From the NCBI GenBank assembly GCA_009786735.1, contig WQRM01000001.1, positions 9,209 to 21,154 of the forward strand: a DNA stretch of 11,946 bases, read 5' to 3'. Positions within the stretch are counted from its first letter, which is position 1. Each line of letters starts with the position of its first letter. A program made the position numbers and the translations under genes. The DNA is from Oscillospiraceae bacterium (lineage in GTDB: Bacteria; Bacillota; Clostridia; Oscillospirales; Acutalibacteraceae). The notes beneath the pieces are model-generated. The model worked only from the letters and a program-made list of their open reading frames with translations, searched no databases and was not told the origin of the DNA. This document shows positions 1 through 11,915 of the stretch, one piece after another.

Positions 1-2748
1 GACCACCCGATTACGATACAAAAACCCGTTACGGTTACGCCGCGCGCGGGTGCTTTTCCGATGCCGCGTGGTTTCATGATGAATCCGCATGTGGTGCGTG
101 TGCACACTGGTAACACCGTTGTTTCCACGCTTTCCGCGCAACCTGATTTCTTGCCCCTCGTCAATTTCAACCTTCTTGATGGTAACAATGACCACTTTTA
201 TTTCAACACAAATCCGCAAGTGGCGCGCATTGTGTTAACAGATGCAGAGTTAGAATTCCAAGAAACCATCTACAGTTACAATGCGTTTGTTGAGGAGCTT
301 ATTGCTTCGCTTACCGAGATGGTCGAGAATGGTTACTTAACCGAAGAAGAAGCGCATGAAAAGTTTGAACAATTGCGTGCTGAAAAGCAAGATTATCTAT
401 CAAGAACCTTTAGTGAATTGCAAATTGAGGCACTTTCACCCGGCACCACGGTGTTGACTTTTCCGGTGATGGCAATCAATCCCTTGACTGGCGTATTTGT
501 CAACGCATTTTACTACCTTGAAGTGATTGTTAGCGATGAACTCGATGACCTTGGTCTAGCAACAAACCTCATCGTTTCGCCTGATTCGGCTGCGTTGTAT
601 GTCGGCGGAACAATTGCTTTGCAAGCGCAAGTTTTGCCTGGCGATGCGGAAAACAGTCTAATTTGGATTAGCAACAATCCAACGGTTGCGCGCGTTAGCA
701 ACGCTGGTGTTGTCACCGCCTTGCGAGCTGGCACAGCGGAGATAACTGCAAGAACGCTTGATGGCTCTAACCTCTCGGCAACATCCGTAATCACCGTAAA
801 CAATCGTCTGGTGCAGCAAATCACGCTTTCGCAAACAGAGATAACCCTCGCAGTGGGCGAAGAAACACCGCTGACTGCAATTGCATCGCCTACTTATGCT
901 ACAATTCGCGACCTTGCTGTTAGCGTGAGCAATCCTGATATCATCAGCTTTGAAAATGGCGTAGTTCGAGCACTTAGCCCTGGCACTGCGACTATCACAT
1001 TCAGCGCGCAAGATGGTAGTGGTGTGTCGGCTTCTCTAGTCGTAACTACATATATCCAACTCGTGGAAAGCATTGTGCCATCGCAAACAGAAATGACGAT
1101 ATCCGTGGGCGACTTAATCCCCCTAACCGCAGCTGCATTGCCTGCCAATGCCACGAATCCAGAGCTTTCAGTCATGGTTAGTGACCCGAACATCATCCGT
1201 CATGAAAACGGCGTGGTGCGTGCACTGACCGCTGGAACGGCTACTGTTACTTTCTTTGCGCAAGATGGGGGCGAGGTGACCTCAACGGTGACAGTTGAAT
1301 CTGTCCTTACGCCAATATATGTTGACCCCGCAGTTGCCGCTGGTGGCTTCCACTATCATGTGGCCATGTTGCGCTATGATGCTACAGTATGGACATGGAA
1401 TTACGGTGAGATTGAACCTACACAAGTCCCAGGATTGTTTAATATCACACAAGTTGCGATTGGCGCACACAACCTTGCATTGCGTAACGATGGCACTGTG
1501 TGGGTATGGGGCGAAAATCGTCTTCCAGAACAAGTACAAGGGTTGAGCCGCATTGTAGACATCTCTACTGGACTTGAACATAGCTTAGCGGTGTGTGAAG
1601 ATGGAACGGTTTGGGCTTGGGGTGGTAATCGTTATTTGCAAGTGGGTGTTGAAAGTGTTGCTTATGTCGCTGCGCCTATGCAAGTAGCTTTCCCAACGGG
1701 TGTGTTCATCACTGCCGTTGCGGCAGGCGGAAACCACAGTATTGTGCTGTGCAGAGAGGGGTATGTCCATACATGGGGACGAGTAGCCCAAGGGCACAGC
1801 ACAGCAGAACCGCACAGGGAAATTCTAACACATATAACCGGTGTGACAGCGGGGCTGTTTCACGGTGCTGCGCGAGTTGACATGCGAGCAGTGTGGTCTT
1901 GGGCGATACCGAATTATGACTCGGTTGCCATCACTCGAAGGATTCCAATGTTATATTTTGATGCTGGCGGTCTTGTTACCGCTATCGTAAGTGATAATGC
2001 GGAGATTTTGCTTTGGCATCAAGATCTCCGTGAGGCAGAACATATATGCAGCGAGCTTTGTTACATGTGTTATATTTTGCAAAAAGACTCTCTACAATCT
2101 ATATTTCCGCATAAGGTATACGGATTGCAAGATATTGTGTCTGTTTCAACAGGGATGTTGCACGTTACGGCAGTTTGTAATGATGGCTATGTATGGGTGA
2201 TTGGTGATGTTTTTGAGTGCCAAAAGACTCCCGCAACACAAAGCATTGCAACGCCCTTGCGGATTCCTAATTTCAACTTGGGAGGAAATCCTCCGAGCAT
2301 TACAACTGTTTTCGATACAGATACTGGCGTGAGTGCCGAGTTTGCTAGTGATACTTTTCCTGCGGGTACGCTTATGCAGGTAGAATTCGTGACAACGGAT
2401 GCCATGAACAGTACCAACGCTGCCCTGCAAGCATGGGACATTTCTTTCGTATATAGTGATATGAAAGTGCAACCTAATGGCTATGTTACAATTCGGTTGC
2501 CAATACCGCTAGACGCCGGTTACGCTCCCGAACAAATGATTGCGCATCACATTGATACTGACGGTAACGCTACGCCTTTGGAAACACGCGTGGAACGAAA
2601 CTATCTTGTGTTTGAAACCGATCGCTTTAGCACCTTTGCAATTTTCATTCAAGAAATATCCCATCAATGTTGGTATCAACAGTTGCCCGCTTGGATACAA
2701 TGGATATTACGATGGATATTTTTTGGCTGGATATGGATGTCGTGTTAG
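1..2748 (+). CDS. BIG2 / RCC1-propeller surface protein (5' end outside window)
   Basis: The frame is open from base 1, so the true start and any signal peptide lie upstream; the ATG at 61 is internal. From the sequence: three tandem BIG2 (bacterial Ig-like) domains at about nt 550-810, 811-1059 and 1060-1302, each with the pattern 'VGxxxxLxA...NPxIxxxxNGVVxALxxGTAxIT'. Then come seven RCC1-like blades (about nt 1341-2215), each of the type 'GxxHxxALxxDGTVWxWG', enough to close a seven-bladed beta-propeller. Blades 5 and 6 are degenerate, and a Cys-rich insert (ICSELCYMC) precedes blade 7. A beta domain of the 'VQPNGYVTIRLPIP...FSTFAIF' type (about 2300-2650) and a Trp-rich tail end the protein. 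BIG2 and RCC1 domains are common in secreted clostridial proteins, so binding at the cell surface is a reasonable inference; the ligand is unknown. It lies 25 bp upstream of a second secreted protein with the same tail. Confidence 0.9.
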   Translation, partial: DHPITIQKPVTVTPRAGAFPMPRGFMMNPHVVRVHTGNTVVSTLSAQPDFLPLVNFNLLDGNNDHFYFNTNPQVARIVLTDAELEFQETIYSYNAFVEELIASLTEMVENGYLTEEEAHEKFEQLRAEKQDYLSRTFSELQIEALSPGTTVLTFPVMAINPLTGVFVNAFYYLEVIVSDELDDLGLATNLIVSPDSAALYVGGTIALQAQVLPGDAENSLIWISNNPTVARVSNAGVVTALRAGTAEITARTLDGSNLSATSVITVNNRLVQQITLSQTEITLAVGEETPLTAIASPTYATIRDLAVSVSNPDIISFENGVVRALSPGTATITFSAQDGSGVSASLVVTTYIQLVESIVPSQTEMTISVGDLIPLTAAALPANATNPELSVMVSDPNIIRHENGVVRALTAGTATVTFFAQDGGEVTSTVTVESVLTPIYVDPAVAAGGFHYHVAMLRYDATVWTWNYGEIEPTQVPGLFNITQVAIGAHNLALRNDGTVWVWGENRLPEQVQGLSRIVDISTGLEHSLAVCEDGTVWAWGGNRYLQVGVESVAYVAAPMQVAFPTGVFITAVAAGGNHSIVLCREGYVHTWGRVAQGHSTAEPHREILTHITGVTAGLFHGAARVDMRAVWSWAIPNYDSVAITRRIPMLYFDAGGLVTAIVSDNAEILLWHQDLREAEHICSELCYMCYILQKDSLQSIFPHKVYGLQDIVSVSTGMLHVTAVCNDGYVWVIGDVFECQKTPATQSIATPLRIPNFNLGGNPPSITTVFDTDTGVSAEFASDTFPAGTLMQVEFVTTDAMNSTNAALQAWDISFVYSDMKVQPNGYVTIRLPIPLDAGYAPEQMIAHHIDTDGNATPLETRVERNYLVFETDRFSTFAIFIQEISHQCWYQQLPAWIQWILRWIFFGWIWMSC
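2668..2745 (+). other. Trp-rich C-terminal tail, copy 1
   Basis: The last 26 residues have the pattern C-W-Y-x2-L-P-x-W-I-x, then WILRWI-x-FGWIWM-S-C. The stretch is hydrophobic, contains a single Arg and runs to the stop codon with no charged residues after it. 17 of 26 positions match the tail of the next gene. No LPXTG motif is present. It is probably a sorting, anchoring or secretion signal; this is inference from position and conservation. Confidence 0.75.
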
Positions 2749-2773
2749 ATAAAATATATGAGGAGATGACATT

Positions 2774-3793
2774 ATGAAAAAACTGCTTTCAATTTTGCTA
2801 GCGATACTCCTAATGGGGATAATTGTCTTTGCGGTAACTGTTTCTGTAGTGGCGCACGGAAATGATGATAACTGGTGGATTGGCGTCGATTTCACCCCGC
2901 CAGCAAATCTTGATCAGCTAAGTGCAGAAGAACAGCTGGAATACTTCAATCTTGTGGCTCAACGTGTGCGTACGCAAATGCCTGAATTTTCAGAGCGAAG
3001 TCGATTTTGGATTGATATTCCGAATATGTTATTTTCAGGTTCTGTCGCACTAGTCCAACCCATAATTGATAGTATGATTTTGGATTTTTATCCTGGACAT
3101 TGGTTCACATGGCAAAATTTTCTTGGTGAAAGCAATAGAGGACTTTTTCTTTCATCAGGGCACTACGCATCCTCATTAGGGCTAGAAAATATCGATTCGA
3201 TTGCGGTGGAACAACAAGAAAACAATTGGGTGATTGAGGTCAATGTGCGCAATGAAACAAACCCTCTTGGAGGACTCTACAGCTCTGTAGGGCGAATCGC
3301 ACCAGTTTTTGATCGCGAGTTCATCTTTAGGGAACTAGAATTCTCTGGTGCGCCCATTGAAGCAGACATGGATAATGTTACGTTATATTACCACAGCGTC
3401 TATGCGCGGCTTGTGGTGAATCAACAAGGTCAAGTAATTTCAGGTTCAAAGGGCTATCGCATTCTCGCGGATGTTCGCAATGTGCGCATTGGCAGAGGTA
3501 TATTCAGCGTTACCACAGATGCAATTATTCCTCAAGTTTCGGAATGGCAGTACGCAAATTTCGTTTGGCCTGTTGTTGATTGCAACGGAAACATCGTGTT
3601 AAATGATTATGGCTATCCAGTCGCCGACGAAAGCGGAGAAACCGTTGACTTTCCTCCTTACACCCCAGGTGACCCATGGATTGTTGAAAATGGCCTATGT
3701 CCTTGTGTAATGCGCTGGTATAACCGTGTGCCAAACTGGCTGCACTGGATTTTGCGCTGGATAGCCTTCGGTTGGATTTGGATGTGTTGCTAA
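2774..3793 (+). CDS. Secreted protein of unknown function with Trp-rich tail
   Basis: 339 aa. The start at ATG 2774 is supported by an AGGAG at 2761-2765. The first ~28 residues are a classic signal peptide (MKK, then a long Leu/Ile/Val core, then VVAHG), so the protein is exported. The mature body begins DDNWWIGVDF and I do not recognise it. It contains 'LDQLSAEEQLEYFNLVAQRV' early on, and then beta-rich sequence with 'NNWVIEVNVRNE' and 'VYARLVVNQQGQVISGSKGYRIL', which looks like a beta-sandwich or lipocalin-like fold, without assignment. A 'CPC' lies just before the Trp-rich tail, which is shared with the upstream surface protein. The 25-bp gap and the terminator after the stop suggest one operon with the BIG2/RCC1 gene. 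The function is unknown; the shared tail suggests the same cellular destination. Confidence 0.88.
   Translation: MKKLLSILLAILLMGIIVFAVTVSVVAHGNDDNWWIGVDFTPPANLDQLSAEEQLEYFNLVAQRVRTQMPEFSERSRFWIDIPNMLFSGSVALVQPIIDSMILDFYPGHWFTWQNFLGESNRGLFLSSGHYASSLGLENIDSIAVEQQENNWVIEVNVRNETNPLGGLYSSVGRIAPVFDREFIFRELEFSGAPIEADMDNVTLYYHSVYARLVVNQQGQVISGSKGYRILADVRNVRIGRGIFSVTTDAIIPQVSEWQYANFVWPVVDCNGNIVLNDYGYPVADESGETVDFPPYTPGDPWIVENGLCPCVMRWYNRVPNWLHWILRWIAFGWIWMCC
3713..3790 (+). other. Trp-rich C-terminal tail, copy 2
   Basis: The last 26 residues have the pattern R-W-Y-x2-V-P-x-W-L-x, then WILRWI-x-FGWIWM-C-C. The protein sequence is nearly the same as in copy 1, but many codons differ at the third base (for example ATA/ATT, TTA/TTG, CGA/CGC, GGC/GGT). 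The similarity therefore reflects selection on the peptide rather than a recent DNA duplication. Confidence 0.75.
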
Positions 3794-3802
3794 TAAACGC
3801 TT

Positions 3803-3845
3803 CCCCCTAGCATCCCGCAAGAGGCTAGGGGAATTTGATTTTACA
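3803..3845 (+). terminator. Intrinsic terminator after the secreted-protein operon
   Basis: CCCCTAGC (3804-3811) pairs with GCTAGGGG (3824-3831) around a 12-nt loop and is followed by the T-rich run TTTGATTTTA. It lies 10 bp after the stop of the 339-aa gene. Confidence 0.75.
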
Positions 3846-4945: not shown

Positions 4946-5368
4946 GTGGCATTGTTGACATTTGAAGAATTAAGGCAGTTGGAGCAAATTGCGGCGGCCA
5001 CCGCTCCCTTGCCGGTTTGCGAAAGGCTCATGGCTTTCATGGACTTTCGCCGGTGGAATCGGCAGCGTTTCACCCTACATACAGGCCTGGACGAGTCTAC
5101 TTACAGCAAACTCAAACATAATCAGCGCAAGCGTCTGGACATGCGCACGCTCATTGCCATTTGTGTCGGCCTGCGCCTGCCGCTGCCCATTGTGGAGGAC
5201 TTGCTGCACCACGCCGGCATGGCCTTTTCAAACAGCTTGGAAGATCAAGCTTATCGTTATGTTGTGCTGATACTCAATGGTGCAGGGCTGGATGCCTGCA
5301 ACGCTTTTCTGCGAAAACACGGCATGACCCAACTTGGCGCGTTTGCCAAAGACGAGCTCGCCGCATGA
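4946..5368 (+). CDS. Small HTH (XRE/lambda-repressor-like) DNA-binding protein
   Basis: 140 aa. The start is GTG 4946, supported by a GGAGGGAGGG ribosome site 7 nt upstream. Residues ~37-92 (FTLHTGLDESTYSKLKHNQ ... RTLIAICVGLRLPLPIVEDLLHHAG) match the compact helix-turn-helix domain seen in many Firmicutes proteins, where a 'TxSKixxN...k.tvialaiaL.L...et.dLL..AGy..S' pattern is followed by a short C-terminal region. The residues after ~95 (SLEDQAYRYVVLIL ... HGMTQLGA) correspond to that tail, which in relatives ends 'FDxPLLG'. It is probably a transcriptional regulator or the DNA-binding half of a larger system. No partner domain (macro, vWA) is present. It stands alone between two terminators, so its expression may depend on readthrough from the leader RNA. 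Confidence 0.75.
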   Translation: MALLTFEELRQLEQIAAATAPLPVCERLMAFMDFRRWNRQRFTLHTGLDESTYSKLKHNQRKRLDMRTLIAICVGLRLPLPIVEDLLHHAGMAFSNSLEDQAYRYVVLILNGAGLDACNAFLRKHGMTQLGAFAKDELAA

Positions 5369-5369
5369 T

Positions 5370-5396
5370 GCGCTCCTGAAAGGGGGCGCTTTTTTT
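5370..5396 (+). terminator. Terminator of the HTH gene
   Basis: GCGCTCC (5370-5376) pairs with GGGGCGC (5383-5389, one G-U pair), followed by seven Ts. It starts 2 bp after the HTH stop codon. Confidence 0.88.
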
Positions 5397-5409
5397 GTGC
5401 CCGAAAATA

Positions 5410-5432
5410 AAAAATGCCGCTGCGGCATTTTT
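5410..5432. terminator. Perfect palindrome, probable bidirectional terminator
   Basis: AAAAATGCCGC, a central T, then GCGGCATTTTT: a perfect 11-bp inverted repeat with an A run on one side and a T run on the other, so it can terminate transcription from both directions. Its first 16 bases recur at 5517. Confidence 0.7.
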
Positions 5433-5628
5433 GACCCTAGATATCTAAGGCTTTGCAAAAGGCTCGAATATTGCGGCGCGTGAAAGCCTTGTGTATAGCG
5501 CGTTTGCGCTTCCGTGAAAAATGCCGCTGCGGAATTGTCAACGTCGCCGAAATGGAGTATGCTTAGCGCAGAGAGCTGGCCAGCCTCAGTCTACCCGATT
5601 GGAGGAACCGCATATTGAACGACCCCTA
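5433..5628. other. Non-coding junction before the replication module
   Basis: No convincing gene. AAGGCTTT (5447-5454) and AAAGCCTT (5483-5490) form an 8-bp inverted repeat. From 5567 one frame reads RRELASLSLPDWRNRILNDP and stops at TAA 5627-5629, overlapping the helicase ATG as TAATG. This looks like the severed 3' end of an upstream gene, but no longer frame is left to identify it. GGAGGA at 5601-5606 is ideally placed for TTG 5615, not for ATG 5629. Confidence 0.4.
5517..5532 (+). repeat. Second copy of AAAAATGCCGCTGCGG
   Basis: The 16-bp sequence AAAAATGCCGCTGCGG occurs at 5410-5425 and again here, 107 bp later. The second copy lacks the CATTTTT half and so is not a terminator. The two copies directly flank a non-coding 91-bp segment. 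Confidence 0.6.
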
Positions 5629-5715
5629 ATGCCCATCCGTACCACGCCATACCAGCACCAGCGCGAGGCCTTTGCGTTTGCCATGCGGCTGTTCGGATTG
5701 GAGGGAGGTGATTGC
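5629..5715 (+). pseudogene. N-terminal fragment of the SNF2-type helicase, cut by HNH gene
   Basis: ATG 5629 opens MPIRTTPYQHQREAFAFAMR, then LFGLEGGD. This is the typical N-terminus of the phage/ICE SNF2-like helicase family, in which the TPYQHQ..AF motif is the Q-motif-like region just ahead of motif I. The frame then runs into unrelated sequence and stops at 5790. The continuation (KSTGLALLMEMG and motif I) appears in the same reading frame at 6151 onward, about 440 bp later. Between the two lies an HNH endonuclease gene whose ribosome site (GGAGGGAGG) is made from the last helicase codons. The fragment alone cannot be a functional helicase. Confidence 0.78.
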
Positions 5716-5716
5716 G

Positions 5717-6142
5717 ATGCCGAAGGTGTTAATTCCGTGCGACCTGTGCGGAGCGACATTTTTCAAGACCGAGAAAATTCGCAAGCATAATTTCTGCTGC
5801 CGCGAACACTTCTACGCTTGGAACGCAAAACGCATCGCTGAGTACAACCAAACCGCTAACCCCATGAACCAGCCCGGCGGCGTGATGGAATCGCGCTTGC
5901 GGCGTGGCGAAATCCTGCGAAATCGTGGCGAGGGCAAAACCTACCGCAAGTATCTCGGCAGGCACGAGCATCGCCACATTGCAGAACAGATGCTGGGGCG
6001 ATCATTGCGCGATGGCGAGATTGTCCATCATCGTGACGGCAACAAGCGCAACAACGACCCCGCAAATCTTGAGGTACTGCCCTCGCAAGCCGAACATGCG
6101 CGACGGCATTTCACCAAAGCAAAGGCAGGTGATGCAAAATGA
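5717..6142 (+). CDS. HNH homing-type endonuclease inserted in helicase gene
   Basis: 141 aa from ATG 5717, with GGAGGGAGG about 8 nt upstream; the frame is open further upstream, but that sequence is helicase coding DNA. The N-terminus has a zinc-finger-like cluster (C8, C11, C27, C28: CDLCGATF ... FCCREHFYAWN), as in many phage HNH nucleases. The catalytic HNH region is residues ~84-131: GRHEHRHIAEQMLG, then EIVHHRDGNKRNNDPANLEVL and HARRH, with H104/H105, D107, N109, N117 and H127 as likely catalytic or metal-site residues. It probably nicks or cuts double-stranded DNA at a site in intact helicase genes, which would promote its own spread. It fills nearly the whole interruption, leaving no room for a group I intron core, so it is an intron-less insertion. 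Its TGA overlaps an ATG (ATGA) that restarts the helicase frame. Confidence 0.88.
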   Translation: MPKVLIPCDLCGATFFKTEKIRKHNFCCREHFYAWNAKRIAEYNQTANPMNQPGGVMESRLRRGEILRNRGEGKTYRKYLGRHEHRHIAEQMLGRSLRDGEIVHHRDGNKRNNDPANLEVLPSQAEHARRHFTKAKAGDAK

Positions 6143-7484
6143 ATCTCCAAAAAAGCACAGGCCTGGCCTTGTTAATGGAGATGGGCTAGGCACCGGCAAA
6201 ACCATCACCAGCATTGCCATTGCAGGCGCATTGGCGCAGGCGGGCAAAGTCCAGCGCGTGCTTATCGTTGCCCCGCTGTCCATCTTGGGCGTGTGGCAAG
6301 ACGAGTTCGCCAAGTTTGCGGCGTTCGACTACACGCTGCAAGTGCTGACCGGCAGCAGCACCCAAAAAGCCAAAACCCTGCGCGGGCTTAATGGCTCCGG
6401 CTTGCAAGTTGCCGTGGTGAATTACGAAAGCGCATGGCGGCTGGAAAAAGAACTCGCAGCATGGCAACCCGACCTGATCATCTGCGATGAGGGGCACAAA
6501 ATCAAAAGCCATGGCACCAACGCCAGTAAAACCATGCATCGACTTGGGGCGCGGGCGAAGTATCGGCTGCTGCTGACCGGCACGCCGGTGACCAACAAGG
6601 CCGTGGACATTTTTTCGCAATACAAATTCCTGCACCCCGCCGTGTTTGGCACGTCATTCTACCGCTTTCGCAATCGCTACTTCGAGCAGGGCTACTTTCC
6701 ATCACAGCTGACAATGAAACAGCACATGGAGCCGGAATTTACGCAGCGATTGCACAGCATCGCGTTTCGAGCCACGAAGGCCGACTGCCTTGACCTGCCC
6801 GACACCTTGGACATTGTGCGCTCGGTGGAGCTTGAACCCGCTGCCCGGCGCACCTACCACGACTTGGTGCGCGACAGTTTTGCAGAGCTTGGCGTGGAAG
6901 ATACCGTCACCGCCGCCAATATCCTCACGCGGTTGATGCGCTTGTCGCAGTTGACCGGGGGCTTCATCAAGCCCGACGATGGCAAGGTGGTGCAAATCAG
7001 CCGGGCGAAGTTGGCGGCACTGGAGGACATCATCGAACAGGCCGTGGCGGAGGGCAAAAAGCTGGTGGTTATCGCCCGCTTTGTTGCCGAGATTGAAGCC
7101 ATTTGCGCCATGCTTACAAATATGGGCATCGCCCACAGCTGCATCATGGGCGGCGTAACCGACCGCGATGAACAAGTCGTAAGCTTCCAAACCGACCCCA
7201 CCGTGCAGGTGTTTGTCGGGCAGATTGCCACGGCGGGCATGGGCATCACGCTCACGGCGGCAAGCACGATGGTGTTCTATTCCCTCGACTACAGCATGTC
7301 GAATTTTGAGCAGGCCAAAGCCCGCATCCACCGCGTGGGGCAGCGTGACAAGTGCACTTATGTGTACCTCGTGGCGCGTGGCACGGTGGACGAAAAAATC
7401 CTGCAAGCCCTGCGCGACAAAGCAGACCTCGCAAAGACCCTAATCGACGATTTTAGAACTGGAGGAAATCCCTATGCAGAATGA
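6132..7484 (+). CDS. SNF2-family helicase/ATPase, C-terminal bulk (5'-disrupted)
   Basis: Superfamily 2 DNA-dependent ATPase of the phage/ICE SNF2 type, probably acting in element DNA replication or remodelling. The visible motifs are GTGKT (motif I, 6189-6203), VLIVAPLSILGVW (Ia), DEGH (II, 6486-6497), LLLTGTPVTN (III), GQIATAGMGITLTAAS (V) and RIHRVGQ (VI, 7323-7343). Both RecA lobes are present. In this frame the start I chose is ATG 6132 (MQNESPKKHRPGLVNGDGLG), with only a weak AGG upstream. It replaces the conserved ALLMEM before motif I with unrelated residues because of the 5-nt shift, and it also lacks the N-terminal TPYQHQ region. ATPase activity is therefore doubtful, yet the remaining ~425 residues have no stop, so the break is recent, a sequencing error, or bypassed by frameshifting. 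It overlaps the next gene by 11 bp. Confidence 0.8.
   Translation: MQNESPKKHRPGLVNGDGLGTGKTITSIAIAGALAQAGKVQRVLIVAPLSILGVWQDEFAKFAAFDYTLQVLTGSSTQKAKTLRGLNGSGLQVAVVNYESAWRLEKELAAWQPDLIICDEGHKIKSHGTNASKTMHRLGARAKYRLLLTGTPVTNKAVDIFSQYKFLHPAVFGTSFYRFRNRYFEQGYFPSQLTMKQHMEPEFTQRLHSIAFRATKADCLDLPDTLDIVRSVELEPAARRTYHDLVRDSFAELGVEDTVTAANILTRLMRLSQLTGGFIKPDDGKVVQISRAKLAALEDIIEQAVAEGKKLVVIARFVAEIEAICAMLTNMGIAHSCIMGGVTDRDEQVVSFQTDPTVQVFVGQIATAGMGITLTAASTMVFYSLDYSMSNFEQAKARIHRVGQRDKCTYVYLVARGTVDEKILQALRDKADLAKTLIDDFRTGGNPYAE
6139..6189 (+). pseudogene. Helicase segment up to motif I, ended by a frameshift
   Basis: ATG 6139, overlapping the HNH stop as ATGA, reads MNLQKSTGLALLMEMG and then hits TAG at 6187. 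STGLALLMEMG is the segment just before GTGKT in intact relatives (LLMEMGTGKT). Deleting five bases (GGCTA or an equivalent circular shift, within 6184-6191) restores MEMGTGKT and joins this frame to the downstream helicase frame. So the segment belongs to the same gene as the fragments on both sides. Confidence 0.7.
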
Positions 7485-7890
7485 TCTATTTGAACTGGCC
7501 GACCAAGTGCGCGAATTGCGCGATGAAAAAGACGATGCCGAGCGCACCGTGAAGGAAATTTCAGCTGAATTGGAAGCCGCCGAAACCGCTCTGGCCGAGG
7601 CGATGCTCAACAGCGAAACGCAGAATTTTACCCGCGCTGGACGCATGTTTTGCCTCACCACCAAGACCCGCGCAAGTGCCATCGCCGGGCAAAAAGAAGA
7701 GCTGTTTGCCGCACTCAAAGACAACGGTTATGGCGAGCTTGTCTACGAAACCGTCAACGCCAACACGCTGAGCAGTTTTGTTAAAGAGCAGATTGCCGAA
7801 CATGAGCAGCTGCCAAGCTGGCTCACCGGCCGCGTGAATGTGTTCGAGAAAACCGGCGTCACAGTCCGCAAATCGATGAAGAAATCTTAG
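7474..7890 (+). CDS. Phage-type coiled-coil protein of unknown function
   Basis: 138 aa. The start at ATG 7474 has GGAGG about 9 bp upstream and overlaps the helicase stop by 11 bp, implying coupled translation. Residues ~5-48 form a charged heptad-like coiled coil (LADQVRELRDEKDDAERTV, then EISAELEAAETALAEAM). A compact C-terminal region follows (NFTRAGRMFCLTTKTRASAI ... GYGELVYETVNANTLSSFVKEQ ... LPSWLTGRVNVFEK). I recall similar proteins directly after SNF2 helicases in clostridial prophages, but I know of no established function. Its position suggests a replication accessory role, perhaps as helicase partner; this is inference only. Confidence 0.75.
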   Translation: MQNDLFELADQVRELRDEKDDAERTVKEISAELEAAETALAEAMLNSETQNFTRAGRMFCLTTKTRASAIAGQKEELFAALKDNGYGELVYETVNANTLSSFVKEQIAEHEQLPSWLTGRVNVFEKTGVTVRKSMKKS

Positions 7891-7902
7891 GAGGAAATCA
7901 CT

Positions 7903-8622
7903 ATGCCAAACGAAATTACTACTACCACGCAGGGTTTCATGAGCCTTGCCAACAACGACATCGCCGCCATGATGGCCGAGGAATTAGACGGCCTCGATGC
8001 AGGCTTCGAGCGCATCAAAATCCCCGCAGGCGGCAGCACCATGTTTGAGGTGCCCGGCGAGGATGGCGAGCCCGAAAGTGTCAAAGAATTCTCGGCGGTT
8101 ATTCTGTACCATCACCCGCTGCACAGCTACTACGCGACCAAGTACACCGGCGGCAACCAGCCACCCAATTGTGCAAGCTTCGATGGCGTAACCGGCGAGG
8201 GTTCGCCCGGCGGTGCCTGCCGCAAATGTCCGCTCAACCAGTTCGGCAGCGGCGAAAACGGCGCAAAAGCCTGCAAAAACCGCCGCCGCATCTACGTGCT
8301 GCGCGAGGGCGAAATCTTCCCGCTGCTGTTGAGCCTGCCCACCGGCAGTTTGCAAGAATTCACGCGGTATATTAAGCGGCTGCTCAGCCGTGGCCGCAAA
8401 AGCAACGCCGTGGCGACGCGCTTTACGCTGCGCAAGGCGACCAATGCAGGCGGGATTGCTTACAGCCAAGCGCAATTTGCAATTGATCGCAACCTCACCA
8501 CCGAAGAACATGCGCTGGTGGAAAAGCTGGCCGAGCAAGTGAAAGCCTATGCCCGGCGTGTGGGCTTTGAGGACGATGTGCCCACCTGCGATCCCGAAAC
8601 CGGCGAGGTCGCCGAAGCCTAA
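7903..8622 (+). CDS. Conserved phage/ICE Zn-cluster protein, possible ssDNA-binding role
   Basis: 239 aa. ATG 7903 has a near-perfect ribosome site (TTAGGAGGAAATCACT) and begins 12 bp after the previous stop. Four cysteines, C90, C106, C109 and C124 (PNCASF ... GGACRKCPLNQFGSG ... KACKNRRR), look like a zinc ribbon. The following core is well formed: IYVLREGEIFPLLLSLPTGS, LQEFTRYIKRLLSRGRKSN, then FTLRKATNAGGIAYSQAQF. The C-terminus is acidic (VPTCDPETGEVAEA). An acidic tail, a basic beta-rich core and placement between helicase and primase genes recall phage single-strand binding proteins, but I see no direct homology to a named SSB family. Treat the ssDNA-binding idea as a hypothesis. Confidence 0.72.
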   Translation: MPNEITTTTQGFMSLANNDIAAMMAEELDGLDAGFERIKIPAGGSTMFEVPGEDGEPESVKEFSAVILYHHPLHSYYATKYTGGNQPPNCASFDGVTGEGSPGGACRKCPLNQFGSGENGAKACKNRRRIYVLREGEIFPLLLSLPTGSLQEFTRYIKRLLSRGRKSNAVATRFTLRKATNAGGIAYSQAQFAIDRNLTTEEHALVEKLAEQVKAYARRVGFEDDVPTCDPETGEVAEA

Positions 8623-8636
8623 CAACACGCCCTGGT

Positions 8637-8662
8637 GGGGAAGTGACGTGCGTTGCTTCCCC
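8637..8662. other. Intergenic hairpin without T tract
   Basis: GGGGAAG (8637-8643) pairs with CTTCCCC (8656-8662) around a 12-nt loop in the 61-bp gap after the Zn-cluster gene. No U run follows, so it is more likely an mRNA-processing or stability element than a terminator. Confidence 0.4.
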
Positions 8663-8683
8663 GCTGGGCAAAAGGAGCAATCA

Positions 8684-8890
8684 ATGCGAAATCACTATTA
8701 CAACGCATCGCACTGCGCCGACCCCACGGCATATGCGGCGCTGGTAAACATCGAGCGCGAAGGCCGATGCAAGCGGCACAAGCGCGCGCAAAAGTACTTT
8801 GAAAAACAGTCCCCTGCAAACATTGTGCGACCCCGAATTGCAACGGAGGAGGCCAAACCGTGCAAAGACCAAACTTCCCGCAGACCCTAA
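8684..8890 (+). CDS. Small phage protein (68 aa), 'HYYNASHCADPTA' type
   Basis: ATG 8684 is preceded by AAAGGAG at 7 nt, an unmistakable ribosome site, and fixes the start well inside a longer open frame. The N-terminus MRNHYYNASHCADPTAYAAL, followed by NIEREGR, matches a motif I associate with small proteins of clostridial prophages, where the same stretch sometimes precedes a DUF4406-type nucleoside-processing domain. That domain is absent here, and the rest is basic and low in complexity. The 3' end overlaps the primase start by 31 bp, so the two are probably translationally coupled. Function unknown. Confidence 0.6.
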   Translation: MRNHYYNASHCADPTAYAALVNIEREGRCKRHKRAQKYFEKQSPANIVRPRIATEEAKPCKDQTSRRP

Positions 8891-11433
8891 CTGCCCTTGA
8901 TCAATGGGTGTGCTGGCGATTGGAAGACGGCAAGAAAATCCCATACAACCCGCATACGCAGGGCAAGGCCAGCAGCACCAATGCGAAAACGTGGGGCGAT
9001 TACAGCTTTGTTGTCGCCGCCTGCAAGGCGTACAACTACACCGGGCTGGGTTTCGTGTTCACCAAAGAAACCGGCATCGTGGGCATCGACATTGACCATT
9101 GCATCGAGGACGGCAAACTCAACGACGTGGCTGCCGCCATATTGGCAAAAGTGCCGCCGACGTTCATGGAACTCAGCCCATCGGGCACCGGTCTGCATAT
9201 TTTCCTGCGGGGCGACATGCCCGGCACCGGCAGCCGCAATAGCAAAACCGGCGTGGAAATGTACAATCATGCGCGGTATTTTACCATGACCGGCAATGCC
9301 TACAACAACGCGCCGCTGGTGGTGGCCGACGATGATGGCGCACTGGCGTGGATTCATGAAAACTATATCGCCCTGCCCAAAAAAGAGCGCAAGCCCAAGC
9401 AAAAGAAAAAGCCCGCAGGCAAAGTGCTCAGCGACGACGACATCATAGCCAAAGCCCGCGACGCTGCCGGGGGCGATGTGTTCGCGGCATTGTGGGCCGG
9501 TGACTGGCAGCAGGAGTTCCCCAGCCAAAGCGAGGCCGACCTCGCCCTGTGTTGCAGACTGGCATTTTGGACGGCGAAGAACGCCGAGCAGATTGACCGC
9601 ATGTTTCGCACGTCGGGCCTCATGCGCGACAAATGGGATGTGCGCCACCATGCCAGCGGCGCCACTTACGGTGAAGAAACCATCAGCCGGGCGATTGAGG
9701 CCACCGAGGAAAGCTATGGCGCGCGCGGCGATGCACCTGTGTTTGCCTACGAGGACAGGTACTTCCGAGCCAAAGGCGACAACACCTACCCGCTGACTAA
9801 TTTCAGCATGCAGCCCATCGAAATGCTGGTGAGCGACGATGAAACACAAATGACCGCCGACTTGGTGACTGTCAAGGGTGAAACCTTCCAGCGCAGCTTT
9901 GCCACCACGGATTTTAGCAACCTGCAAAAATTCAAGAATCTGCTCAACAAAGACACCATTTCGCTCAGTTACACCGGCAGCGAGGGCGACCTCGAATTGC
10001 TGAAAAACTTCGTGGCGGAGCTCAACTGGCCGCGCAAGGTTGGGGTCAAGGCGCAGGGCCTCTATTTCACCCCAACGAGCAGGCTCGTCGGGGACCCCGA
10101 ACGCCGCGATGGCCGCTGGGTCTACGCCGCGCCGGACGGTGGGCTTGCCGCTCATGGCAAAAAAGTCGGCAACATCTTACAGCTGGAAAAATGGAAGGCC
10201 ATTGAAAGCGGGCTGCTAACCCAAACCTGCATCGCCAAACAGCAACTACCCATGCTGCTGGCGTGGCTGCTGGACTACAATGAGCTGGCCAAAACGGTGT
10301 CGGTGCTGGCATGGGCAGCGGGGTGTTTTATCAAGGAGCATTTGCGCCGCGCGGGCATCAAGTTCCCGCACCTGTTCTTGATTGGTGAAGCCGGGAGCGG
10401 CAAAAGCAACACCCTCGAACGTGTCATTTTGCCCATCTTTTCGCAGTCCAAAGTGACGGCGGCATCGCAAATCAGCGGGTTTACGCTGATGAAGGAATCG
10501 GCCAGCAGCAACCTTGTGCCGCAGCCGCTTGATGAATTTAAGCCCAGCAAGATGGACAAAACCAAGCTGGGCTGCCTGTACAATCATTTCCGCGATAGCT
10601 ACGACGGCCATCAAGGGCAGCGCGGGCGGGCCGACCAAAGCATCGTGTACTACGACCTGCTTGCGCCGCTGGTTGTGGCCGGTGAGGAATCGCCCGACGA
10701 GGCCGCCATTCGTGAGCGCGGGATTGAGTTGCTGTTTAGCCGCCGCGACCTCAAAGGCGAGGGCTGCCGGGAAGCGTTCAACAAACTGTGTGCCAATCAG
10801 CACCTGCTTGGAAACTTTGGCCGGGGTCTGTTGGAAGCTGCACTGAGAACAGAAAGCCGCGAAGTCAAGGCATGGTACAACGCCGCACTGACCATCTTTG
10901 ACAAAAACCTGCCCCCGCGCATTGTCAACAACCTTGCGTGTTGCGCCGCCGGGCTGCGGTTGGTTGAAAAGCTGCTGGTGCTGCAAGGGCTGTGCTGGGA
11001 TAGCGTGTTTGAGATTTCGTTCGAGGTTGCAGTGGCGCACTTGGCATTTGCGGCACGGGAGTACCTGCTGGACGGCAGTGCGGTGAACCGTGGCATTGTG
11101 GAGCAGAGCCTCGAAATTATGGCGCGCATGGGGCTGACTTTTGGGCTCGACTGGAAGCCATTGGCCGATGATACACAAGTCGCTATCAATCTCAAACGCT
11201 GCTACGACCGCTTCACCAAGTACCGCCGTGACCATGCCATCACGGGCGAGTGCCTGGAATACCGGCAGTTCACCAAGCAGCTGCGCAACAGCGACTTGTT
11301 TGTGGCGTATAAGCCGGTGAACTTCAATAATATCACCACAAAGGCGTACGTGCTCAACTATGCGCTGCTGCGGGAACGCTGCGATTTTGGCCACATTTAC
11401 GACCCTGTTTCTGACTATGAGGAAATTACCTAA
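8860..11433 (+). CDS. Primase-polymerase / helicase-type ATPase (NrS-1-like replication protein)
   Basis: 857 aa from GTG 8860, with GGAGGAGG 7 nt upstream. The N-terminal ~165 residues form an AEP-type primase-polymerase domain like that of phage NrS-1: GIVGIDIDHC gives the D77/D79 metal pair, SPSGTGLHIF (106-115) is the second motif, and GVEMYNHARYFTMTG the third. Residues ~190-290 (DDDIIAKARDA ... WAGDWQQEFPSQSEADLALC ... RMFRTSGLMRDKWD) match the NrS-1 helix-bundle domain. The C-terminal half is a DUF927-like P-loop ATPase with Walker A GEAGSGKS (509-516) and a probable Walker B around LVVAGEE (604-610). It probably primes and unwinds element DNA for self-sufficient replication. The gene is intact, unlike the helicase. 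Its last codons form one arm of the inverted repeat at 11425. Confidence 0.87.
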   Translation: MQRPNFPQTLTALDQWVCWRLEDGKKIPYNPHTQGKASSTNAKTWGDYSFVVAACKAYNYTGLGFVFTKETGIVGIDIDHCIEDGKLNDVAAAILAKVPPTFMELSPSGTGLHIFLRGDMPGTGSRNSKTGVEMYNHARYFTMTGNAYNNAPLVVADDDGALAWIHENYIALPKKERKPKQKKKPAGKVLSDDDIIAKARDAAGGDVFAALWAGDWQQEFPSQSEADLALCCRLAFWTAKNAEQIDRMFRTSGLMRDKWDVRHHASGATYGEETISRAIEATEESYGARGDAPVFAYEDRYFRAKGDNTYPLTNFSMQPIEMLVSDDETQMTADLVTVKGETFQRSFATTDFSNLQKFKNLLNKDTISLSYTGSEGDLELLKNFVAELNWPRKVGVKAQGLYFTPTSRLVGDPERRDGRWVYAAPDGGLAAHGKKVGNILQLEKWKAIESGLLTQTCIAKQQLPMLLAWLLDYNELAKTVSVLAWAAGCFIKEHLRRAGIKFPHLFLIGEAGSGKSNTLERVILPIFSQSKVTAASQISGFTLMKESASSNLVPQPLDEFKPSKMDKTKLGCLYNHFRDSYDGHQGQRGRADQSIVYYDLLAPLVVAGEESPDEAAIRERGIELLFSRRDLKGEGCREAFNKLCANQHLLGNFGRGLLEAALRTESREVKAWYNAALTIFDKNLPPRIVNNLACCAAGLRLVEKLLVLQGLCWDSVFEISFEVAVAHLAFAAREYLLDGSAVNRGIVEQSLEIMARMGLTFGLDWKPLADDTQVAINLKRCYDRFTKYRRDHAITGECLEYRQFTKQLRNSDLFVAYKPVNFNNITTKAYVLNYALLRERCDFGHIYDPVSDYEEIT

Positions 11434-11569
11434 TTACCATAATTACTATCATTTTTATAGGTCGATGGAAACGGCCTCGCGCATGGGTACGCACACGCGC
11501 GTATACGCGCACGCGAGAGGTTTTTCCCCGCCTATCTGAAAAACAGGGTAATTACGGTAATATGGTAAC
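11425..11569. repeat. Nested inverted repeat with iteron-like units, candidate origin/operator
   Basis: The outer arms 11425-11446 and 11548-11569 are complementary at 18 of 22 positions. Each arm is built of three 8-bp units of the TAATTACC type. Inside, TTTTTATAGG (11452-11461) can pair with CCTAT and AAAAA (11531-11543, 3-nt bulge). Further in, CTCGCG/CGCGAG arms enclose a perfect palindrome. The left arm covers the end of the primase gene; the right arm ends 3 bp before the VRR-NUC ribosome site. It could be a replication origin, an operator or an mRNA structure. Confidence 0.6.
11475..11525 (+). terminator. G/C-rich hairpin followed by T run
   Basis: CCTCGCG (11475-11481) pairs with CGCGAGAGG (11512-11520, one bulged base), followed by TTTTT (11521-11525). 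The 30-nt loop contains the 14-bp palindrome GCGCGTATACGCGC (11497-11510). It could be a terminator or attenuator between primase and nuclease genes, or the core of the larger inverted repeat. Confidence 0.45.
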
Positions 11570-11579
11570 GGGAGGACAC

Positions 11580-11915
11580 ATGCTCGAACGCGACATCACC
11601 ACCGCCATCCTGCGGTACCTCAAGACTGTGCCGCAGTGCTTTGCGTGGAAGACCCACGGCGGGGCATATGGCACAGCCGGGTTGCCGGACATCATTTGCT
11701 GCTATCGCGGGCGATTCGTCGCCTTTGAGGTGAAAACAGCCACCGGCAAGCCGACAAAGCTGCAAAACCACACCATTGCAAAGATCAAAGCCGCAAAGGG
11801 CGAAGCCTTCATTGTGCGAAGCGTTCAAGAGGTTCAGGCCATTCTTGAAACTTTGGAGGCTAAATATGACCAAAAAGGAATTATCCCAGCTATATTGGCT
11901 CAACCGCGAGATTGA
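11580..11915 (+). CDS. VRR-NUC domain nuclease
   Basis: 111 aa, starting at ATG 11580 with GGGAGG 5-6 nt upstream. The compact single-domain sequence matches phage VRR-NUC (PD-(D/E)XK superfamily) proteins: an N-terminal helix (MLERDITTAILRYL), GxAYGTAGLPDIICC with D37, then FVAFEVKT with E50 and K52 as the D-ExK catalytic triad, followed by KPTKLQ. Stand-alone VRR-NUC proteins of this size are frequent in Firmicutes prophages next to primase genes and act as structure-specific nucleases, plausibly resolving replication or recombination intermediates. Expression may be affected by the inverted repeat immediately upstream. The last 50 bp overlap the start of the next gene. Confidence 0.9.
   Translation: MLERDITTAILRYLKTVPQCFAWKTHGGAYGTAGLPDIICCYRGRFVAFEVKTATGKPTKLQNHTIAKIKAAKGEAFIVRSVQEVQAILETLEAKYDQKGIIPAILAQPRD

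What the first reader, a model, noticed from the sequence alone, without database searches (positions are those of the whole stretch)
2668..3790. Shared Trp-rich C-terminal tail on two otherwise unrelated secreted proteins
Adjacent genes encode proteins with unrelated bodies (BIG2/RCC1 versus unknown) but matching final 26 residues, 17 identical, around WILRWI-x-FGWIWM and ending in Cys. Synonymous sites differ, so the peptide itself is conserved. No LPXTG or other sorting motif I know of is present. A hydrophobic, Trp-dense segment that ends the protein with no basic tail suggests an undescribed sorting or tail-anchoring tag, possibly recognised by a dedicated protease or transferase. The flanking cysteines (C before WY in copy 1, CPC before the tail in copy 2, terminal SC/CC) may matter for lipidation or disulfides.
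Basis: partly seen in the sequence, partly recalled or inferred. Interest (0 to 1): 0.78.

Follow-up and report, generated by a model that had tools for sequence, protein, structure and literature searches.

The report
Shared tryptophan-rich tail on exported proteins
Some gut bacteria of one family end many otherwise unrelated exported proteins with the same short tryptophan-rich tail (…FGWIWM or …FGWIWY), which looks like an undescribed tag that holds proteins on the cell surface.

Summary
Two adjacent genes encode unrelated proteins whose last 26 residues match at 17 positions, 8 of 10 degenerate residues with different codons. The tail recurs: 9 profile matches in the window's genome; FGWIWM in 13 of 14 genomes of the genus; a sister form, WWQWIIVIVLFGWIWY, in other genera of the family. 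Of 156 collected tails, 141 lie within 7 residues of the stop; 105 bodies match 38 Pfam families; 111 of 132 start like signal peptides. In a phylum sample only 3 of 298 other genomes match, weakly and partially. Sortase, CPBP, rhomboid and exosortase do not track it; recurring neighbours include no plausible sorting enzyme. Some homologues carry other anchors instead, and in three genes the tail follows the signal peptide. Best reading: a portable membrane-anchoring tag, probably retained. Anchoring is inferred; topology and partner are unknown. Terminal cysteines are not general.

The parts
1..2748 (+). protein 1: Big_2 (3 stretches) plus RCC1-like repeats; full ORF starts upstream of the window (G000:C1:8636-11956, 1106 aa) with a signal-peptide-like start
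2668..2745 (+). C-terminal Trp-rich tail of protein 1 (CWYQQLPAWIQWILRWIFFGWIWMSC)
   Evidence: profile hit (E 1.9e-13; the profile contains this tail)
2722..2739 (+). FGWIWM core of tail 1
2774..3793 (+). protein 2: 339 aa, no Pfam family; nine homologues at 35-47% identity, all ending in the tail
2774..2860 (+). signal-peptide-like N-terminus of protein 2 (MKKLLSILLAILLMGIIVFAVTVSVVAHG)
   Evidence: sequence; by eye
3713..3790 (+). C-terminal Trp-rich tail of protein 2 (RWYNRVPNWLHWILRWIAFGWIWMCC)
   Evidence: profile hit (E 3.0e-13; the profile contains this tail)
3767..3784 (+). FGWIWM core of tail 2
3804..3831 (+). hairpin after protein 2 (CCCCTAGC/GCTAGGGG, 12-base loop, then a T-rich stretch), possible transcription end; read by eye, not reported by the terminator scan
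   Evidence: sequence; not listed

Best explanation
The tail is a portable, Trp-rich membrane-anchoring tag. The protein is exported through its N-terminal signal peptide. The last ~16-18 residues ([QN]W-[IL]-[IL]-x-I-[FLV]-x-F-G-W-[IL]-W-[MY]) then lodge in the outer face of the cytoplasmic membrane, by a short helix or a re-entrant or in-plane insertion with the aromatic residues at the interface, and keep the body on the cell surface. It does the job that an LPXTG-type signal or a helix-plus-basic anchor does on some homologous proteins, without the basic stop-transfer end and probably without cleavage. Shown: recurrence, position near the C-terminus, diverse bodies with export signals, conservation of the peptide over synonymous changes, homologues with other C-terminal anchors. 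Inferred: membrane insertion, topology, retention, lack of processing. Unexplained: why FGWIW is so strict, which suggests a specific binding partner or special packing in the membrane.
For:: 156 tails distinct by their last 45 residues, 141 within 7 residues of a stop, 10 in the 8-40 class (one of them because its frame runs off the locus; L209 and L218 look like partial or chance matches), 5 further in; no match in the reversed proteins of 26,407 frames; signal-peptide-like start in 111 of 132 with closed 5' end (heuristic, no control of its own), ATG starts only: 67 of 86 against 188 of 733 other ORFs (a rough control, some tail ORFs with variant cores left in); 38 Pfam families among 105 tail proteins (25 shown: Big_2, LRR, List_Bact repeats, subtilase, lipase, CHAP, M23, lysozyme, transglutaminase and others); 145 of 156 fit a core pattern that demands Gly; in these the second Trp is invariant though Phe was allowed; 73 are FGWIWM, spelled 15 of 24 possible ways; 38 rows of tail-free or variant homologues; clear ones end PPPTG plus helix plus RKRKDDE (L355), helix plus VRRKKA (L254), helix plus KRKKNK or RLRKRKK (L248, L251), or amphipathic ends (L245, L275); in the window's own genome L157 shares 13 of 19 residues of the tail's head with L231 (pair picked by eye; 0 of 200,000 shuffles reach it) but runs on into an ordinary helix ending RLRRT. 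L032, L238 and L334 carry the tail right after the signal peptide, before a protein-2-like, a Big_2 and a GH31 body; mean interfacial free energy of the last 18 residues -10.6 (M form) and -12.3 kcal/mol (Y form), scale recalled.
Against: A plain anchor need not conserve FGWIW so strictly; this points to specific recognition. In 59 of 145 tails a charged residue, mostly R or K, stands in the ten residues before FG, odd for a spanning helix. The helical hydrophobic moment is low (0.15-0.19), so the tail is no classic amphipathic in-plane helix either. The three N-terminal placements are few and come from draft genomes. Of the 38 rows, 12 come from one query, one row is a truncated copy that itself bears the tail, one has a variant core, and several are repeat or frame artefacts. 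The collected tails come from loci fetched because they held tails, and the profile was rebuilt from its own hits.
Confidence: 0.55

Rival explanations
1. The tail is a processed sorting signal: an unknown membrane enzyme recognises FGWIW[MY], removes the tail and joins the body to a lipid, glycan or wall component, as sortase-like systems do.
For: Many copies per genome in several genera (up to 15), patchy distribution within one family and near-absence outside my family samples; strict core; one clear homologue with a sortase-type signal (L355). Sortase genes lie within about 3 kb of tail genes at five places (G183 twice, G271, G335, G005; places); three of these are one conserved locus PQTG protein, sortase, LCP family, tail protein. 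The number expected by chance was not computed.
Against: No constant motif upstream of the hydrophobic stretch and no basic end (K/R after the core in 20 of 133). Exosortase superfamily at E 0.001 in 2 of 52 genomes, over the cut-off in 1 (both tail-bearing); rhomboid in 8 of 26 tail-bearing and 6 of 26 others; sortase in 25 and 26, CPBP in 24 and 25. No plausible enzyme among recurring neighbours. N-terminal placements would leave almost nothing to sort.
Confidence: 0.25
2. The tail is a docking helix: it binds one conserved integral-membrane partner, in or at the membrane, which would explain the strict core and the indifference to position.
For: Strict core; polar Q/N at -8 and frequent R/K at -4, on one helical face; both N- and C-terminal placements.
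Against: No partner identified; neighbourhoods do not show one. Exchange with ordinary helix anchors does not need a partner.
Confidence: 0.15
3. The matching tails are chance or a recent DNA duplication of the 3' end, with no function.
For: A few tails are nearly identical on different bodies (protein 2, P0002, P0094), so modules do seem to move.
Against: Shuffle test and codon differences; FGWIWM in 13 of 14 genomes of the genus with no match of the reversed pattern; nine homologues of protein 2 at 35-47% identity all keep the tail.
Confidence: 0.02
4. The aromatic C-terminus is an outer-membrane beta-barrel signal.
For: Aromatic end of the protein.
Against: Omp85 in 0 of 26 tail-bearing genomes (the control rings in 7 of 14 well-known genomes); none of the 25 Pfam families shown for the bodies is a barrel.
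Confidence: 0.01

Closest known systems
LPXTG/sortase sorting signal
   Same: C-terminal, on many unrelated exported proteins, hydrophobic; in one clear case a homologue has such a signal instead (L355)
   Different: no LPXTG-like motif in general, no basic end, core motif at the end of the hydrophobic stretch; sortase also present in genomes without the tail
PEP-CTERM/exosortase and PGF-CTERM/archaeosortase
   Same: lineage-limited C-terminal tag shared by otherwise unrelated proteins
   Different: tripartite layout absent; enzyme superfamily over the cut-off in 1 of 52 genomes
GlyGly-CTERM/rhombosortase and MYXO-CTERM/myxosortase
   Same: many copies per genome, homologous only in the tail, patchy distribution (passages read)
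   Different: no Gly-rich or Cys motif before the helix and no basic cluster; rhomboid and CPBP families do not track the tail
Ordinary C-terminal transmembrane anchor with basic stop-transfer end
   Same: position, hydrophobicity, presence on homologues; L157 in the window's genome has the tail's head on such an anchor
   Different: short hydrophobic stretch, about 40% aromatic residues, strict FGWIW core, mostly no basic end
Trp-rich interfacial or in-plane (monotopic) membrane anchors
   Same: aromatic-rich, high predicted interfacial affinity
   Different: low hydrophobic moment; I know of none with this core (PMC1564421 seen only in a search listing with the start of its abstract)

Membership tests
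LPXTG/sortase signal | LPXTG-like motif before the helix | tested here: not met
   a regular expression finds IPGTN-like words before 2 of 156 tails only
LPXTG/sortase signal | basic cluster at the C-terminus | tested here: not met
   any K or R after the core in 20 of 133; 67 of 133 end at the last core residue
LPXTG/sortase signal | cognate sortase co-distributed | tested here: inconclusive
   sortase in 25 of 26 tail-bearing and 26 of 26 other genomes, so presence is uninformative; a special subfamily was not tested
PEP-CTERM/PGF-CTERM | exosortase/archaeosortase present | tested here: not met
   over cut-off in 1 of 52 genomes (G005), a second weak match in G315; 24 of 26 tail-bearing genomes have none
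GlyGly-CTERM | rhomboid-family sorting protease present | tested here: not met
   match in 8 of 26 tail-bearing and 6 of 26 other genomes
MYXO-CTERM and Cys-type signals | invariant Cys before the helix | tested here: not met
   among the five commonest residues listed per position, Cys never exceeds 21% in the 14 residues before FG
MYXO-CTERM and Cys-type signals | CPBP-family protease co-distributed | tested here: inconclusive
   CPBP in 24 of 26 tail-bearing and 25 of 26 other genomes; none found in tail-bearing G011 (95% complete)
Conventional C-terminal transmembrane anchor | basic stop-transfer end after the helix | tested here: not met
   K/R after the core in 20 of 133
Conventional C-terminal transmembrane anchor | spans and anchors an exported body at the membrane | not testable with these tools
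   homologues with other anchors are indirect support only
Outer-membrane beta-signal | Omp85/BAM machinery | tested here: not met
   0 of 26 tail-bearing genomes
Any described Pfam/NCBIfam tail family | profile match over the tail | tested here: not met
   on 105 proteins: none of the families shown (25 of 38 and 25 of 57) is a tail model by name, the rest were not displayed; PF26918, a label and absent from the held library, varies with the Ig-like stretch between proteins with the same tail, so it seems not to be the tail

The most novel reading that the evidence does not exclude
A new class of surface-targeting tag in Oscillospirales that lacks the motif, helix, basic-cluster layout of the described C-terminal sorting signals, works from either end of the mature protein, and is read by an as yet unknown membrane partner specific for FGW[IL]W[MY].
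Probability: 0.35. Interest if true: 0.8.

Novelty: new variant of a known kind. Interest (0 to 1): 0.64.

Why it matters
It would suggest, in one stroke, the location of many unannotated exported proteins in gut Oscillospirales (enzymes, adhesin-like repeats), and it gives a defined list of genomes with and without the tag with which a partner, if there is one, could be found by phylogenetic profiling. If the tag anchors by itself, it would also be a short peptide for displaying proteins on Gram-positive cells without sortase.

Tried and rejected
Chance or recent duplication: rejected (codons and shuffles).

Lipidation or disulfide role of the terminal cysteines: rejected as a general feature.

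Dedicated known sorting enzyme: sortase, exosortase, CPBP and rhomboid tested on 26 tail-bearing genomes and 26 genomes of the family without a listed match; none tracks the tail.

Enzyme encoded nearby: comparison of 934 ORFs (simple longest-ORF calls) in 60 loci of nine genomes. Some families do recur, the most frequent in 7 of 60 loci (a metallophosphoesterase-like family in 6 genomes, a membrane transporter-like family in 4); the rest are housekeeping-like. Names are by eye, not scanned; none looks like a sorting enzyme. A PQTG protein, sortase, LCP-family, tail-protein run is conserved in three genomes of one genus.

Outer-membrane signal: rejected. RNA element: no Rfam match in the window. 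PDB relatives of the tail profile: none at E up to 10.

Literature: no paper in the held library contains FGWIWY or FGWIWM; two broader searches found nothing on point. The library holds only open-licence PMC papers. Papers: PMC11980579 and PMC3237569, passages; all others in search listings only.

NCBIfam names such as internalins or effector ligases are read as cross-matches of leucine-rich repeats, not as identities.
Full report
What is in the window. Protein 1 (window 1-2748, continuing upstream to G000:C1:8636; 1106 aa, with one undetermined residue just before the window) has three Big_2 stretches and RCC1-like repeats. Protein 2 (2774-3793, 339 aa) starts like a signal peptide and matches no Pfam family. 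The genes are 25 bases apart on one strand. Their last 26 residues agree at 17 positions; 100,000 shuffles reach at most 11. Of 10 matching residues with more than one possible codon, 8 use different codons. The bodies show no credible similarity (best E 0.41).

It is a family of tails. The DNA pattern for FGWIWM occurs 7 times in the window's genome, with none in the reversed-pattern control. In 98 genomes it occurs in 13 of 14 of the same genus, in 1 of 46 of other genera of the family (G052, where it sits 42 residues inside an 84-codon frame and looks like chance), and in 0 of 38 of other families of the order. That such isolate codes are termite-gut samples is recalled, not tested; the order name Oscillospirales is recalled too.

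A profile reaches a sister form. Other genera of the family end Ig-like proteins with KYxWWQWIIVIVLFGWIWY. With a mixed profile, 25 of 300 genomes of the family match at E 0.01 or better, from 12 of 135 genera. Copies per matching genome: window's genus 4-15, g15 10-11, g119 7-11, g165 6-9, g95 2-7, g154 3, g19 2-3, g16 1-3; G179, G215, G252 and G269 have one weak match each. G028 (g16) and G031 (g19) have none although their genera are positive. In the phylum sample 4 of 299 genomes match, the window's own and three with a single partial match at E 0.004-0.006; in the order sample 1 of 295, the window's own. A search of about 5.8 billion proteins scoring the last 40 residues of one Y-form protein gave 82 proteins, all of which end in the tail; the query includes part of the Ig-like domain. 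The same with protein 2 gave itself and one relative.

Anatomy. From 245 loci (fetched because they held tails) an iterated profile gives 156 tails distinct by their last 45 residues: 141 within 7 residues of a stop, 10 in the 8-40 class (one because its frame runs off the locus; L209 and L218 look partial or chance), 5 further in; the reversed proteins give none. Of the 156, 145 fit a core pattern that demands the Gly; among these the second Trp is invariant although Phe was allowed, 73 are FGWIWM and 32 FGWIWY. Eight residues before the core stands mostly Q or N, then mostly W. Sixty-seven of 133 end at the last core residue; 20 of 133 have a K or R after it; 59 of 145 have a charged residue, mostly R or K, in the ten residues before FG. 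FGWIWM is spelled 15 ways of 24. I see no constant motif upstream. CC or SC ends occur in this set only in the window's two proteins, and outside it in P0002 and P0094.

Bodies. Of 132 tail proteins with a closed 5' end, 111 have a signal-peptide-like start by my heuristic (no control of its own); with ATG starts only, 67 of 86 against 188 of 733 other ORFs (the control is rough). Several of the 19 misses start with another codon or look like fragments. Among 105 tail proteins, 38 Pfam families match at 1e-5 (25 shown): Big_2, leucine-rich and Listeria-Bacteroides repeats, subtilase, class 3 lipase, CHAP, M23, lysozyme, transglutaminase and others. None of the 25 of 57 NCBIfam families shown is a tail model by its name. 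Nine homologues of protein 2 (35-47% identity) all keep the tail, joined by linkers of different length.

Two observations bear on mechanism. First, other anchors on homologues: a search of tail-bearing bodies against other ORFs gave 38 rows. Twelve come from one query, one is a truncated copy that bears the tail, one has a variant core, several are artefacts. Clear ones end in PPPTG plus helix plus basic residues (L355), helix plus basic residues (L248, L251, L254), or amphipathic ends (L245, L275). In the window's own genome L157 (metallophosphoesterase-like by its relatives) shares 13 of 19 residues of the tail's head with L231, a pair picked by eye (0 of 200,000 shuffles), and then runs into an ordinary helix ending RLRRT. 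[quoted passage not shown] Second, three genes carry the tail directly after the signal peptide: L032 (body related to protein 2), L238 (Big_2) and L334 (GH31 with PA14). A single spanning helix there would put the body inside the cell, and a C-terminal cleavage signal would have almost nothing to sort; both speak for an in-plane or partner-bound anchor. Sorting tags inside a protein are reported to work (PMC11980579, passages), so this is not proof. A further sub-form has 28-49 residues after the core (L206, L339, L348, L350).

Search for an enzyme. On 26 tail-bearing genomes and 26 without a listed match: sortase 25 and 26; exosortase superfamily over the cut-off in one and weakly in a second, both tail-bearing; CPBP 24 and 25; rhomboid 8 and 6 at E 0.001. 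Omp85: 0 of 26 tail-bearing. Neighbour comparison in 60 loci of nine genomes found recurring families, the most frequent in 7 loci, but none that looks like a sorting enzyme. Sortase genes lie within about 3 kb of tail genes at five places; in three genomes of g165 this is one conserved run of PQTG protein, sortase, LCP-family gene and tail gene. So ordinary sortase-type signals coexist with the tail in the same genomes.

Verdict. The tag is real, found in part of one bacterial family in my samples, and I found no description of it (open-licence papers only). That it holds exported proteins at the membrane is the best-supported reading but rests on position, composition and the anchors of homologues, not on localisation data. 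The strict FGWIW core is not explained by a plain hydrophobic anchor and keeps a specific partner or enzyme in play.

Noticed in passing
window 4946-11912 (+): Phage-type replication module downstream of the tail genes: HNH endonuclease, DNA helicase, DNA primase and an endonuclease/Holliday-junction-resolvase-type protein by PHROGs matches, with some genes of unknown function.
   Followed up: partly
L260 9928-13556 (-), L302 9776-13332 (-), L303 6218-9841 (+): In one genus a PQTG protein, a sortase, an LCP-family gene and a Y-tail protein lie in a row in three genomes.
   Followed up: partly
L334 4306-7089 (+); L238 9398-10156 (-); L032 772-1719 (-): The tail sits just after the signal peptide, before a GH31, a Big_2 and a protein-2-like body.
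   Followed up: partly
L206, L339, L348, L350: Sub-form with a GGWxWM-type core followed by 28-49 further residues that look alike.
   Followed up: no
L156 (G000:C38): Degenerate tail WYDRLPGWLDFILRFYTLGFFWF with about 20 residues after it, in the window's own genome.
   Followed up: no
P0036, P0037, P0038, P0040, P0082; P0010: Some Y-tail proteins carry precomputed labels PF00963 and PF00404, recalled as cohesin and dockerin, which would suit surface display.
   Followed up: no
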